64,000 bases of DNA from Hyphomonadaceae bacterium. Its GTDB lineage: Bacteria > Pseudomonadota > Alphaproteobacteria > Caulobacterales > Aquidulcibacteraceae. The translations under genes were made by a program, and so were the position numbers. Positions 30,249 through 60,717 of this stretch are shown here, piece by piece; position 1 is the stretch's first letter, and each line of letters opens with the position of its first letter. The notes below the pieces were generated by a model that was not told the DNA's origin, did not search any database, and saw nothing but the letters and a program-made list of their open reading frames with translations. The stretch is from positions 185,846 through 249,845 of the forward strand of contig JAEUMQ010000004.1 in the NCBI GenBank assembly GCA_016791425.1, read 5' to 3'.

Positions 30249-31565
30249 TCAGCCGGCTTCTGTGGCGATGATCCAATCGAGGATCTTCTCCGAGAAGCCG
30301 TCCACGCGCCGCCACGATCCATGCCCGACGCCGTGCTGGTACGAGGCCACGTTGACCATGTACCCTACGCCCTTCGGCGCATCGACGCGGTCATGCGATT
30401 GCTCGTCGGTGAAGACGATCAGCCGCACGCCCTTCTGATCGACCTGCGTCACGGCTTTCCCAAGCTCGGTTCCGCCGTGCGGCTGCGAGTTTACGATCGC
30501 ATCCCGCAGCGCGAAGCCGCGCCGCGGCGGGATTTTCTTCACGTCGTTGGAGAACGTGTAGATCTCGACGTCCTCGCCGATCTCCCGCGCCAGCACCGCA
30601 AGGCCGCACGCGGCGTCCATCCGGCGCATTTCCGAGCGCATCGAGAGCGGCGCCTCCATCGAGCCTGACACGTCCACGAGGAGCCGCGTCTTGCCCTTGA
30701 GCTTCGCGTGGCCCTTGATCGAGCGGAACATCGCGTGCTCCAGCTCCGGCTCGAGCTCGGGCGCGTGCTGCGCGGCCGCGATGAAGCGGTAGGGCAGCAC
30801 ACGTTCTGTGCTCATGTCCTCAAGCGCCTGGCCGATCGTCTTCTTCGCCACGCCAGCATGCAGCATGCCGCGCAGGTTCCGCAGCAGCGCGAGCGCGCCA
30901 AGCTTCTTCTCCGCGATCAGCCGCTCGAACGTCGCTTTCTTGTCGGCGCCGCCGGAGAGCGAGACTTCCCAGGTGTCGGGCGAAGAGAGTTTCCCGTCGA
31001 TCAGCTCTTTCCAGACCTTCTCCTGCTTCGCGTCCTTCGGCTTGGCGTGCACCAGGAAAAGCACGTCGCGCAGACGCACTGCGCCGTCGCGGTCGTACTT
31101 CGCGAGCTGATAGGCGTCGAACTTCGCGAACGCGCGCGCCAGACCCTTCTTCGCTTGCGCGGAGACGGCGGCCTTCTTGCGCTGCTGCATGGGCCCGAGC
31201 GCGTCGGCCCAATAGATCGCCAGGAACTCGGTCAGCTCGTCCGGACGCTGGATGATGCGCTCGAGCGTGTCGGCCACGAGACCGCGATGGTCTTCGTGAC
31301 GCGCCATCTCCCGCGCGATGAGCAGCGGCGCGTGCCGCAGCTTCATGTCCTCGCGCGCCTCGATCGCCATCGCGGCCACGACCTCCGGCTTCACCTTGGG
31401 CACGAGCGCGGCCATGCGCTGCGCGATGGAGACCCCGTCCTCGTAGAACTGGTCCTCCCACAGCATCGAGTTCATCAGCGCCCGCCGCAGCTCCTGCTCC
31501 GGCGTGAACGCGCGGCCCTTGGCGCCCTCATGCGTGCGCGCGGGCTTCGGCTTGTTGATCTTCAT
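30249..31565 (-). CDS. rsr: TROVE/vWA protein, Ro60 orthologue (Rsr)
   Basis: A 438-residue TROVE-domain protein. The N-terminal two thirds are alpha-helical HEAT-like repeats that in Ro60 form the RNA-binding ring. The C-terminal vWA domain has its MIDAS motif DVSGSM at residues 298-303, with later Thr (HGGTELG) and Asp (VFTDEQ) ligands. Ro60 binds Y RNAs on the outer surface and misfolded RNA ends in the ring. Bacterial Rsr helps RNA maturation and turnover with PNPase. The start at 31565 has GAAGGTGG upstream. Five Y-RNA-like units lie directly upstream on the same strand; no rtcB or pnp gene is in the window. Confidence 0.93.
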   Translation of the reverse strand: MKINKPKPARTHEGAKGRAFTPEQELRRALMNSMLWEDQFYEDGVSIAQRMAALVPKVKPEVVAAMAIEAREDMKLRHAPLLIAREMARHEDHRGLVADTLERIIQRPDELTEFLAIYWADALGPMQQRKKAAVSAQAKKGLARAFAKFDAYQLAKYDRDGAVRLRDVLFLVHAKPKDAKQEKVWKELIDGKLSSPDTWEVSLSGGADKKATFERLIAEKKLGALALLRNLRGMLHAGVAKKTIGQALEDMSTERVLPYRFIAAAQHAPELEPELEHAMFRSIKGHAKLKGKTRLLVDVSGSMEAPLSMRSEMRRMDAACGLAVLAREIGEDVEIYTFSNDVKKIPPRRGFALRDAIVNSQPHGGTELGKAVTQVDQKGVRLIVFTDEQSHDRVDAPKGVGYMVNVASYQHGVGHGSWRRVDGFSEKILDWIIATEAG

Positions 31566-31621: not shown

Positions 31622-31734
31622 TTGGCGGGGAACGGCCAAGATCGCGAACCCTCCTTTCGGAGGCCCGCATGCTCTGCGCGCGGACGCGCCAGCTTCTGCG
31701 GTCCCGAAGAACCCGATCTCTTCACCACCGCCAA
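31622..31734 (-). ncRNA. Y-RNA-like unit 1
   Basis: About 113 nt. The 5' and 3' ends pair as TTGGCGG/CCGCCAA (31728-31734 with 31622-31628). The 5' strand then has the invariant TGGTGAAGAGATC and the 3' strand GTTCCCC. Inside are an AGCTGGCGC...GCGCAGAGC hairpin (D-arm-like) and a CCTCC-GAAA-GGAGG hairpin with a GNRA loop. It ends about 57 bases before the rsr start. Confidence 0.7.
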
Positions 31735-31742
31735 ACCATGAC

Positions 31743-31852
31743 CGGCGGGGAACGATCGAAATCGCGAGCCCTCCACTGAAGGAGGCGGCGCGCTCTGCGC
31801 CGAAGCGCCAGCTTTCGCCCTTGCGAAGAACGCGATCTCTTCACCACCGCCG
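31743..31852 (-). ncRNA. Y-RNA-like unit 2
   Basis: About 110 nt, closely similar to unit 1. The terminal stem is CGGCGG/CCGCCG (31847-31852 with 31743-31748), changed on both sides relative to unit 1. The conserved 5' strand TGGTGAAGAGATC and 3' GTTCCCC are present. The D-arm-like hairpin is AGCTG-GCGC-TTCG-GCGC-AGAGC with a UUCG tetraloop, followed by a CCTCC/GGAGG hairpin. Confidence 0.72.
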
Positions 31853-31869
31853 AAACTTGCCGATCCTTA

Positions 31870-31985
31870 CCGACGGGGAACGGGCGAGACGCGAGCCCTC
31901 CCTTGCGGGAGATCGAGGTGCTCTGCGCAACGTGGCGCCAGCTTTCCGTCGTTAGCGAAGAACGCGATCTCTTCACCACCGTCAG
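31870..31985 (-). ncRNA. Y-RNA-like unit 3
   Basis: About 116 nt. The terminal stem is CTGACGG/CCGTCGG (31979-31985 with 31870-31876), including a compensatory A-T pair and one wobble. The conserved TGGTGAAGAGATC and GTTCCCC strands are kept. The inner hairpin has changed to CTCCC-GCAA-GGGAG, which again keeps pairing and a GNRA loop. AGCTGGCGC...GCGCAGAGC is present. Confidence 0.72.
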
Positions 31986-31999
31986 ATGTTGAAAGCCGA

Positions 32000-32170
32000 G
32001 CCGGGGAACAGGCGAAACCTGAGACGCTGCAAGCACTCTTGCGAATGTTGCAGCTGGCGCTCTCCTTGAGCTACGGGCCCTCATTGCTTGCGCAAATTGG
32101 CGGGCCCGGCGGGACTTGCACCCGCATCCTCCTCGTTAGCAGCGAAGTAACAGATCTCTTCACCACCGGC
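32000..32170 (-). ncRNA. Y-RNA-like unit 4 with permuted tRNA-like module
   Basis: About 171 nt. The terminal stem is GCCGG/CCGGC (32166-32170 with 32000-32004), with the conserved TGGTGAAGAGATC and GTTCCCC strands. Between them, in order: a T-arm-like hairpin GCGGG-TGCAAGT-CCCGC, an acceptor-like 3' strand CGGGCCC followed by GCCA, an 18-base loop, the acceptor-like 5' strand GGGCCCG, and a D-arm TAGCTC...GAGAGC. This is a circularly permuted tRNA shape, as reported for YrlA-type bacterial Y RNAs. A further hairpin with a GCAA loop (CTGCAA/TTGCAG) follows. Confidence 0.75.
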
Positions 32171-32182
32171 GCGGCAATAGCG

Positions 32183-32228
32183 GACCGTTTCCCGAAAAGT
32201 GTTTGCGGTTTTCGGACAAGAAACGGTC
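32183..32228 (-). ncRNA. long inverted repeat between units 5 and 4
   Basis: GACCGTTTC pairs with GAAACGGTC (32183-32191 with 32220-32228), and the inner CCGAAAA pairs with TTTTCGG (32192-32198 with 32209-32215), giving a 16-bp interrupted stem. It falls just 3' of unit 5 in the transcript direction. It lacks a T-run, so a processing site or weak terminator is more likely than a classic terminator. Confidence 0.45.
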
Positions 32229-32236
32229 TCAAAAGA

Positions 32237-32430
32237 TTGTCGGGGAATAGGCGAGGCGGAACGGTCACGCACACCGCAAAGCCGAAGCCCCCTAAACTTC
32301 AAGGAAGCTCAAGCTCGAACCCGCGTCGCGACATCCCTGCCGGGACGCCTCCACGGTACGCTGCGCATGCCGGTTGAGCCGCAATATGGAGCGACTTGTG
32401 CGAAGGATCCGGTCTCTTCACCACCGACAA
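32237..32430 (-). ncRNA. Y-RNA-like unit 5 (most diverged)
   Basis: About 194 nt. The terminal stem is TTGTCGG/CCGACAA (32424-32430 with 32237-32243), a fully compensated variant. The 5' strand TGGTGAAGAGACC differs by one base from the other units, and the 3' strand is ATTCCCC. The interior is longer and differs from units 1-4. It contains GGGTTCGAGC, reminiscent of a T-loop, but I cannot fold a clean T-arm. Confidence 0.62.
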
Positions 32431-32532
32431 ACTGGTCCAGGACGGCGTGGCGCCTGTCCGCGCCTCGCCGCCTGAAGTCGAAACTCTCCTTCGTTTCCTG
32501 GAAAGGAAGCGCCGGTGGGGCCGGAAACAAAA

Positions 32533-32561
32533 ACCCCTCCGGAGCTGAGCTCGGGAGGGGT
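32533..32561 (-). terminator. rho-independent terminator
   Basis: A strong hairpin ACCCCTCC...GGAGGGGT with inner GAGC/GCTC is followed on the minus strand by TTTTTGTTT. It closes a short transcript starting near 32725 and insulates the Y-RNA array from upstream genes. Confidence 0.88.
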
Positions 32562-32587
32562 TCGAAACGAACAGCTCGAAACGGACC

Positions 32588-32686
32588 TCAGTCCATTCCG
32601 CCTCCACGAGAAAGCGCGCGCGCATCCGCGCACGGGACGAGCCCGTGTTCGCTGCGCTGCATGATGAACGTACCTGCGGTCTTCAT
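32588..32686 (-). CDS. possible 32-residue small protein or sRNA body
   Basis: A short frame of 32 codons begins with ATG at 32686 and ends 27 bases before the terminator. It lies in a transcript of about 190 nt defined by a promoter at 32732-32761. The ribosome site is weak and no family is recognised, so the transcript may be a noncoding small RNA instead. Bases 32762-32933 show nothing else that I can support. Confidence 0.3.
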   Translation of the reverse strand: MKTAGTFIMQRSEHGLVPCADARALSRGGGMD

Positions 32687-60119: not shown

Positions 60120-60535
60120 GTGTCAGCCGGTGTCTATAAGCCGGGTTCTGTGCCCCCGCCAAAGTGTTCCCATGGCGGGGCGGCGACCATTCCTCTGGAC
60201 CGGCCCTCGCGGACCGGTTCTCGCGACCAACCCGACCGCGGCCCGCAGACAGGCCTGCTCCAGTGTGACCCGAAGCGCGCGGTCCTATTCGGTCTTGCTC
60301 CCGACGGGGCTTGCCGTGCCTGCTTCCTTGCGGTCGCAGCGGTGGGCTCTTACCCCACCTTTTCACCCTTGCCTCCCAAATCTCCGGATAAATCCAGCGA
60401 CCCGGGCGGCGGACTAATCTCTGTGGCGCTATCCCTGAAGGCCGCTTGCGCAGCCCCCGGCGGGAATTACCCGCCGTCGTGCCTGCATGGAGCCCGGACT
60501 TTCCTCATGCGTCCCTAAATCACCGAGGTGACTCA
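60120..60535 (-). ncRNA. rnpB: RNase P RNA
   Basis: About 416 nt, minus strand. The catalytic core is clear: GAGGAAAGTCCGGGCTCC near the 5' end and the closing ACAGAACCCGGCTTATAGA near the 3' end. The ends pair as P1 (GTCACC/GGCTGAC type, 60533 region with 60122-60128). AGGGTGAAAAGGTG and the CCGCAAGG loop are further landmarks. It is transcribed away from rsmH, and about 180 bases of intergenic DNA (60536-60717) separate them. Confidence 0.94.
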
Positions 60536-60717
60536 GCCCCACGCACGCGGCCGCCCGACACCGACTGACGGTGGAAACATGGCGCCGATACGCCTGTCTT
60601 GAAAGCCCGAAATCTCGCCTCCGAGGCGAATCCGCCGCATGTTCCGAACTTGCTCATGGGCGCCTTGGCGCGCCGCCCGCGCAGAGAATCGCGTTATTGA
60701 CAGGGCAGGAGGGGCAG

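What the first reader, a model, noticed from the sequence alone, without database searches (positions are those of the whole stretch)
31622..32430. Tandem array of five Y-RNA-like genes directly upstream of a Ro60 orthologue
Seen in the sequence: five units on the same strand as rsr share the 16-base core GATCTCTTCACCACCG (reverse complement), at 31715, 31834, 31966, 32153 and 32411 (the last with GGTC). The 5' and 3' ends pair in every unit, and the stem changes on both sides: TTGGCGG/CCGCCAA, CGGCGG/CCGCCG, CTGACGG/CCGTCGG, GCCGG/CCGGC, TTGTCGG/CCGACAA. This covariation is hard to explain by chance. Established knowledge: bacterial Rsr binds Y RNAs encoded next to it, usually one or two. A graded array of five, growing from 110 to about 194 nt away from rsr, is unusual and may give Rsr a set of different adaptors.
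Basis: partly seen in the sequence, partly recalled or inferred. Interest (0 to 1): 0.93.

Follow-up and report, generated by a model that had tools for sequence, protein, structure and literature searches.

The report
Ro60 RNA array with permuted tRNA
Just in front of a bacterial Ro60 gene lie five RNA-like units in a row, one of them laid out as a tRNA cloverleaf in circularly rearranged order with its anticodon arm still present; the set likely gives the Ro60 ring interchangeable RNA adaptors, and relatives carry similar arrays in which the anticodon triplet varies.

Summary
Window 31622-32430 (-) holds five tandem units (112-194 nt) between a conserved terminator-like leader and a Ro60/Rsr gene (30249-31565). 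They share one terminal helix, which covaries across rsr loci (own arms 3.81 of 5 pairs, swapped arms 2.59). The array is not a freak: 263 units were found in 76 of 85 rsr loci, four units in 32 of 39 Bradyrhizobium loci. The window has three unit classes. Unit B (31998-32172) reads as a complete tRNA cloverleaf in circularly permuted order (anticodon arm, T arm, closed acceptor, D arm), cut between D and anticodon arms where the Ro-type helix enters. Its relatives mostly keep the anticodon stem, U33, and G37 mainly where base 36 is G (10 of 12 loops, against 2 of 41), while triplet 34-36 is highly variable among Bradyrhizobium orthologues. The displayed consensus of the curated YrlA family (RF02553) has the same permutation but no anticodon arm; unit B scores 25.9, cut-off 69. 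Likely role: a co-transcribed cassette of Y RNA adaptors for Rsr, some of them anticodon-bearing tRNA mimics. Transcription, Rsr binding and partners are untested. New variant of a known kind.

The parts
30249..31565 (-). rsr: Ro60 orthologue, 438 aa, TROVE plus vWA-type domain with DVSGS
   Evidence: Pfam TROVE 8.1e-20; AF2 model pLDDT 79, pTM 0.56; the 13 best PDB matches are Ro60/Rsr/TROVE entries incl. 2nvo, TM 0.37-0.51
31622..31734 (-). Unit E (short-hairpin class), nearest rsr
   Evidence: R1 41.7 bits; class alignment and fold
31742..31853 (-). Unit D (short-hairpin class)
   Evidence: R1 37.2 bits; inner module 85% identical to a unit of relative L034
31870..31985 (-). Unit C (short-hairpin class)
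   Evidence: R1 41.9 bits; inner module 70% to D and 63% to E
31998..32172 (-). Unit B: Ro-type helix around a circularly permuted tRNA cloverleaf
   Evidence: R1 118.7 bits (member of the training set); descriptor score 22; RF02553 25.9 and RF00005 27.6 bits, both below cut-off
32131..32147 (-). Unit B anticodon-like arm CTTCG-CTGCTAA-CGAGG (5 bp with one G-T, 7-nt loop, triplet GCT)
32126..32130 (-). Unit B 5-nt variable region
32109..32125 (-). Unit B T arm GCGGG-TGCAAGT-CCCGC
32098..32108 (-). Unit B acceptor 3' strand CGGGCCC followed by GCCA
32074..32080 (-). Unit B acceptor 5' strand GGGCCCG, downstream of the 3' strand (permuted)
32059..32071 (-). Unit B D arm GCTC-AAGGA-GAGC
32237..32430 (-). 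Unit A (long class), first in reading order; carries CGTACCGTGGAGGC, conserved in relatives
   Evidence: R1 36.9 bits; class alignment, 20 of 38 predicted pairs with compensatory change
32534..32564 (-). Terminator-like hairpin of the leader before the array
   Evidence: conserved in the 10 loci aligned, window included; pattern found once in own genome
32533..32612 (-). Conserved leader: small hairpin plus the terminator-like hairpin

Best explanation
Window 31622-32430 holds five tandem units on the rsr strand that share a Ro60-type terminal helix, which covaries across rsr loci, and they likely work as a co-transcribed cassette of Y RNA adaptors for the neighbouring Rsr protein. Each unit would bind one Rsr ring by the common helix and hold out a different module. 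Shown from sequence: three module classes (long A; permuted tRNA cloverleaf B; short hairpins C-E), A and B recurring in Bradyrhizobium; one unit laid out as a permuted tRNA including anticodon arm; short gaps (64, 12, 16, 7 nt; 56 nt to the rsr start) with no terminator-like site found between units. Inferred: one precursor transcript cut into single Y RNAs; Rsr bound and kept inactive or redirected by them; the tRNA-like module recognised by proteins that read tRNAs (modification enzymes, nucleases or a PNPase-type exonuclease), so that the set decides what Rsr is tethered to.
For: Terminal helix: own arms pair at 3.81 of 5 outer positions, swapped arms at 2.59, sd 0.07, highest of 500 swaps 2.79, over 124 distinct arm pairs chosen without a pairing rule. 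RNAalifold: compensatory changes in 17 of 28 pairs (B class), 20 of 38 (A class), 7 of 25 (C-E class). Linkage: 263 units upstream of rsr in 76 of 85 loci; in 76 viral-collection rsr loci 169 of 170 R1 hits lie on the rsr strand. Permuted tRNA: descriptor score 20 or more in 78 of 263 units, 0 of 526 shuffles. Anticodon stem of at least 4 of 5 pairs in 63 of 77 such units, shuffled 79 of 385; in a second set 40 of 59, shuffled 77 of 295 (3 of the 59 were also among the 77). Loops: U33 in 45 of 53 distinct loops, purine 37 in 48 of 53, G37 in 10 of 12 with G36 and 2 of 41 without, Fisher 2e-7. rsr identity. Published precedent: Y RNA tethers Rsr to PNPase in D. radiodurans (PMC7790460, PMC4726728; passages).
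Against: No expression or binding data. Single-sequence folds weak, and the terminal helix is missing from the MFE of B and C. No sigma-70-like promoter found. A single long RNA carrying five Rsr sites, or a pure regulatory leader, fits the sequence about as well. Covariation and loop controls ignore phylogeny, and Bradyrhizobium is overrepresented. Compensatory changes in the C-E class are few. 9 of 85 loci gave no unit with this finder. In some viral-collection loci a unit lies downstream of rsr. The Rsr model is moderate, TM to Ro60 structures 0.37-0.51.
Confidence: 0.62

Rival explanations
1. The anticodon-bearing units would be decoys: Rsr-bound false tRNAs that soak up anticodon-cutting RNases or other tRNA-attacking enzymes, with the triplet changing as attackers change.
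For: Triplet 34-36 highly variable while 32, 33, 37 and the T arm hardly change in 35 orthologues, 33 of them Bradyrhizobium; G36-G37 rule kept; arrays also in viral-collection contigs; decoy role already proposed for Salmonella YrlA (PMC7790460, passage).
Against: Only one unit in the window has an anticodon arm. The first positions of the acceptor-closing loop are as variable as the triplet, so relaxed constraint is possible. Exact matches to loops of the host's own tRNAs, 11 of 53, are not above an anticodon-block permutation (1159 of 5000).
Confidence: 0.2
2. The array is a long structured 5' leader of rsr mRNA: Rsr would bind its own leader at several sites and limit its own synthesis; the units need not be cut out.
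For: Array lies between a conserved leader and rsr; last unit a median 48 nt from the rsr start over 76 loci; no terminator-like site between units.
Against: Module classes are kept distinct between orders, which a simple feedback site does not need. In some loci units lie downstream of rsr (e.g. L154, L135).
Confidence: 0.12
3. The units would mature into two-piece RNAs with an open, CCA-ended acceptor, somewhat as permuted tmRNA does (analogy from memory), and be charged or used in translation.
For: The acceptor-closing loop begins N-CCA in 38 of 136 rows (133 units, 3 counted twice) and in 15 of 85 distinct loops, chance about 1 in 64; 23 of the 38 are Bradyrhizobium; unit B has GCCA. None of the 77 units of the first set has a GNRA or UUCG-type cap. 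This last count, found on re-checking, raised the odds slightly.
Against: 19 of the 59 units of the second set close the acceptor with a GNRA or UUCG-type loop, and so do several D-loop-cut units. Permuted tmRNA model RF04321 only 15.7 bits, cut-off 47. N-CCA may be a relic or shared ancestry.
Confidence: 0.06

Closest known systems
YrlA (Rfam RF02553, Y RNA-like)
   Same: Ro-type stem enclosing T arm, closed acceptor and D arm in the same permuted order
   Different: Unit B scores 25.9, cut-off 69; different terminal-stem sequence; has an anticodon arm that the displayed RF02553 consensus lacks (in L050, which scores 73.6, a 15-nt insertion stands at that place); occurs in arrays
D. radiodurans Rsr-Y RNA-PNPase machine (RYPER)
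   Same: Rsr gene with adjacent stem-loop RNAs expected to bind it; same protein fold by model
   Different: Several different units instead of the tether described; partner enzyme unknown here; known to me only from passages in other papers
Salmonella rsr-yrlBA-rtcBA operon
   Same: rsr with adjacent Y RNAs, one with a tRNA-like domain (PMC7790460, passages)
   Different: No rtcBA beside rsr here; the genome's RtcB gene lies on another contig
Circularly permuted tRNA genes and permuted tmRNA
   Same: 3' half encoded before the 5' half (from memory; PMC3978253 seen in a search listing only)
   Different: Opened between D and anticodon arm with a Ro-type helix inserted; RF04321 15.7 bits, cut-off 47

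Membership tests
Ro60/Rsr | TROVE domain over curated cut-off | tested here: met
   71.8 bits, cut-off 23
Ro60/Rsr | Fold of Ro60 | tested here: met
   13 best PDB matches are Ro60/Rsr/TROVE entries, E 4.2e-17 to 7.9e-9, TM 0.37-0.51, on a moderate model
Bacterial Y RNA | Encoded beside rsr on the same strand | tested here: met
   five units, the last 56 nt from the rsr start; 76 of 85 loci
Bacterial Y RNA | 5' and 3' ends form a conserved stem | tested here: met
   own versus swapped arms; consensus folds
Bacterial Y RNA | Transcribed and bound by Rsr | not testable with these tools
   no RNA or binding data held
YrlA RF02553 | Gathering score 69 | tested here: not met
   unit B 25.9 bits; no RF02553 row for the other units up to E 10
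YrlA RF02553 | T arm, closed acceptor, D arm in this order | tested here: met
   unit B
YrlA RF02553 | Terminal stem of the family consensus | tested here: not met
   match covers model positions 24-84 of 114 only
tRNA RF00005 | Gathering score 29 | tested here: not met
   27.6 bits; no ARAGORN call there
Permuted tmRNA RF04321 | Gathering score 47 | tested here: not met
   15.7 bits

The most novel reading that the evidence does not exclude
Rsr loci carry a repertoire of anticodon-bearing false tRNAs: complete cloverleaves in circularly permuted order (cut at the D-anticodon junction, and in a second type inside the D loop), hung on a Ro60 ring, whose triplets are swapped over evolution while the tRNA grammar around them (U33, G37 after G36) is kept. 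They act as a changing set of decoys or baits for enzymes that read or cut anticodon loops.
Probability: 0.25. Interest if true: 0.9.

Novelty: new variant of a known kind. Interest (0 to 1): 0.72.

Why it matters
In the passages that I could read, bacterial Y RNAs appear as one or two RNAs per locus. Arrays with distinct, conserved modules make it testable whether Ro60 proteins swap partners by swapping RNAs. The anticodon arm and its varying triplet give the tRNA mimicry a concrete handle: which protein reads the loop, and why the triplet changes.

Tried and rejected
Tested and weakened: that each anticodon loop copies a real isoacceptor. Exact matches to loops of the 42 own tRNAs: 7 of 29 and 11 of 53; not above anticodon-block permutation (407 of 2000; 1159 of 5000), only weakly above column permutation (46 of 2000; 231 of 5000); above random triplets in the first set (11 of 2000). 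So loop architecture and the 36-37 rule are claimed, identity is not.

Modules rotated into tRNA order and compared with own tRNAs: the best-scoring tRNA carried the same triplet in 4 of the 21 shown (L042, L044, L073, L111). Descent from particular tRNAs is not shown.

R1 as a genome-wide detector: at E 0.001 it hits 124 of 372 class genomes. Of the places above 50 bits that I read, two (G315, G161) are plainly tandem tRNA genes, whose 3'-then-5' order resembles a permuted tRNA; others lie beside a divergent TROVE gene (e.g. G461, G150, G247); G207 contig C55 and G273 were not explained. The weak hits were not read one by one. R1 is not used for prevalence.

A first permuted-tRNA parser was faulty and replaced. 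A first D-loop-cut parser counted 32 units, many false because GAGC of the Ro strand was taken as D stem; the strict pattern gives 11. One of the 77 units (L078 -505) is in fact of that second type. A comparator with rtcBA outside the class was sought without a clear case; one such locus (L309) has an R1 hit of 62.4 bits.

Dropped or doubled rows: L041 was left out of the unit census (no core motif; the looser finder has one hit there and R1 another of 80.8 bits). 7 of the 80 named loci duplicate regions and were dropped; itself kept 80 of 129. In one search I listed 74 hits by hand (viral loci from 59.9 bits, others from 81.5), leaving out L203 and L187 (duplicates), L050, and the hits of L288-L291; 15 of 74 did not parse. 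L116, L120 and L126 are in both the set of 77 and the set of 59, so the 136 rows are 133 units and the 103 rows with an anticodon stem are 102 units; distinct-loop counts are not affected.

Full report
What is there. On the - strand, upstream of a Ro60 orthologue (30249-31565; TROVE 8.1e-20), five units follow one another: A 32237-32430, B 31998-32172, C 31870-31985, D 31742-31853, E 31622-31734. Gaps are 64, 12, 16 and 7 nt, and 56 nt to the rsr start. The exact 14-mer of the core occurs nowhere else in the genome. Rfam finds nothing here at its curated cut-offs. The protein is a Ro60: its 13 best structural matches are Ro60/Rsr/TROVE entries, although the model is moderate (pLDDT 79, pTM 0.56; TM 0.37-0.51).

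Is it more than chance. Units were collected upstream of rsr by sequence motif alone, without asking for pairing: 257 units in 76 of 85 loci. Over 124 distinct arm pairs the arms of one unit pair at 3.81 of 5 outer positions; arms swapped between units pair at 2.59 (sd 0.07, best of 500 swaps 2.79). A second finder with a pairing rule gave 263 units in 76 of 85 loci, 1 to 7 per locus, four in 42 loci. Of 39 Bradyrhizobium loci 32 have four units and 5 have three. In the own family the ten loci scanned have 4 to 6 units (the eleventh, L041, was not scanned there). A looser version of the finder gave 0 to 3 hits per set in Markov copies. So five units are normal for this Rsr clade.

Where rsr occurs. 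It is patchy: 11 of 60 genomes of the family, own genome included, 9 of 385 of the class by TROVE, 9 of 398 of the phylum. In its own genus no close copy was found in three other genomes, one of them 83% complete; another of them (G003) has a divergent TROVE gene.

The classes. Unit A belongs to a long class with the core CGTACCGTGGAGGC, found with variations from Hyphomonadaceae to Bradyrhizobium; 20 of 38 predicted pairs show compensatory changes. C, D and E are copies of one short-hairpin class (inner modules 63-70% identical); D is 85% identical to the matching unit of L034. So the window has a local expansion of that class. In the C-E class 7 of 25 predicted pairs show compensatory changes.

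Unit B. Read 5' to 3' it is: Ro-type strand, anticodon-like arm CTTCG-CTGCTAA-CGAGG, 5-nt variable region, T arm, acceptor 3' strand CGGGCCC with GCCA, 17 nt more of closing loop, acceptor 5' strand GGGCCCG, TA, D arm, Ro-type strand. That is a whole tRNA cloverleaf joined at the acceptor ends and opened between D and anticodon arms, where the Ro-type helix enters. The same layout scores 20 or more in 78 of 263 units and in 0 of 526 shuffles. In 28 aligned units RNAalifold finds the terminal helix, T arm, permuted 7-bp acceptor and D arm, with compensatory changes in 17 of 28 pairs; it does not predict the anticodon arm, which the alignment puts in two registers.

The anticodon arm. Among 77 such units 63 have at least 4 of 5 stem pairs; shuffled 79 of 385. 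A second set gives 40 of 59, shuffled 77 of 295; three units are in both sets. Together they carry 53 distinct loops: U33 in 45, purine 37 in 48, and G37 in 10 of 12 loops with G36 but 2 of 41 without (Fisher 2e-7). In the own tRNAs the same table is 8 of 12 and 0 of 30. Distinct loops are not fully independent. In 35 orthologues (33 Bradyrhizobium, 2 MAGs of related groups) positions 34, 35 and 36 have entropies of 1.2-1.4, 1.4-1.6 and at least 1.8 bits, while 32, 33 and 37 stay under 0.2; the stem pair 31-39 changes on both sides. The first two positions of the acceptor-closing loop are as variable, so relaxed constraint on the triplet is not excluded. Copying of real isoacceptors is not shown.

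A second permutation. In 11 units from 11 loci the cut lies inside the D loop: the 3' half of the D stem stands before the anticodon-like arm and the 5' half after the acceptor; none of the 11 has its own GAGC close after GCTC. The window has none of this type.

Acceptor end. The closing loop starts N-CCA in 38 of 136 rows (133 units), 15 of 85 distinct loops, against about 1 in 64 by chance; 23 of the 38 are Bradyrhizobium. GNRA or UUCG-type caps occur in 0 of the 77 units of the first set and 19 of the 59 of the second. The CCA may be a relic or a processing site.

Comparison. RF02553 (YrlA) has T arm, closed acceptor and D arm in the same order and no anticodon arm in its displayed consensus; unit B reaches 25.9 bits, cut-off 69, over model positions 24-84 of 114. 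In L050, which passes the cut-off at 73.6, a 15-nt insertion stands at that place. A review passage says YrlA resembles the D, T and acceptor arms (PMC8394870). Phage relatives (L296, L300) and a Picosynechococcus plasmid (L301) show anticodon-like loops by eye in the printed sequence, so the arm is not special to this clade. The permutation is therefore known. For the anticodon arm, its loop rule and varying triplet, and the large arrays I saw no description in the listings and passages from searches. The papers most likely to hold one (Chen 2014, Wang 2018, Sim 2020) were not held. From memory, Chen 2014 reports that each species has at least one tRNA-like Y RNA; this comes from no call.

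How it may work. Most likely one transcript starts near the conserved leader, runs through the units into rsr and is cut into Y RNAs; each holds an Rsr ring by the common helix and offers its own module. In D. radiodurans the Y RNA tethers Rsr to PNPase (PMC7790460, PMC4726728, passages). The tRNA-like unit could recruit enzymes that read tRNAs, or serve as decoy, as suggested for Salmonella YrlA (PMC7790460, passage). What is said here of this locus is inference.

The leader. Upstream of the array lies a conserved small hairpin plus a terminator-like hairpin (32533-32612), present in the 10 loci aligned, window included, and found once in the own genome. The terminator stem does not vary, so it gives no covariation; two pairs of the small hairpin have compensatory changes. 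It could be an attenuator.

Limits. No RNA data; loci are dominated by Bradyrhizobium and MAGs; controls do not model phylogeny; parses are by descriptor. Viral-collection contigs may include bacterial DNA.

Noticed in passing
window 32533-32612 (-): Conserved leader before the array: small hairpin, then terminator-like hairpin followed by a T-run, in the 10 loci aligned; GGAGG upstream could pair with CCTCC of the terminator, as in an attenuator.
   Followed up: partly
window 32436-32476 (-): Possible decayed short first unit: TTCAGG...CTGGA around a GC-rich stretch, at the place where several relatives have a 62-72 nt minimal unit. Read by eye.
   Followed up: no
L035, L036, L037, L042, about 200-370 nt upstream of rsr: 27-29 nt segment holding a near-perfect hairpin TTTGGCGGTGGTGACCGCC(A/T)A: a Ro core with no module, just before the last unit.
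   Followed up: no
window 32166-32243 (+) and L033 unit at -493: A palindromic repeat (AAAAGTGTTTGCGGTTTTC type; weak RF02599 match, 31.4 bits, cut-off 398) lies in the A-B gap and also inside the acceptor-closing loop of the L033 unit, so a repeat seems to have landed in that loop.
   Followed up: no
L168, L172: Two viral-collection contigs (308 and 280 kb) each show eight R1 hits in a row upstream of rsr; they may be bacterial or proviral.
   Followed up: no
L044: One unit has a D arm of TC-GTCC-AGTGGCA-GGAC type instead of TA-GCTC, recalling Glu/Gln tRNAs (label from memory).
   Followed up: no
G000 contig C23, 310260-311381: An RtcB ligase gene is in the genome but not beside rsr.
   Followed up: yes
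window 60121-60566 (-): RNase P RNA class A, 248.3 bits.
   Followed up: no
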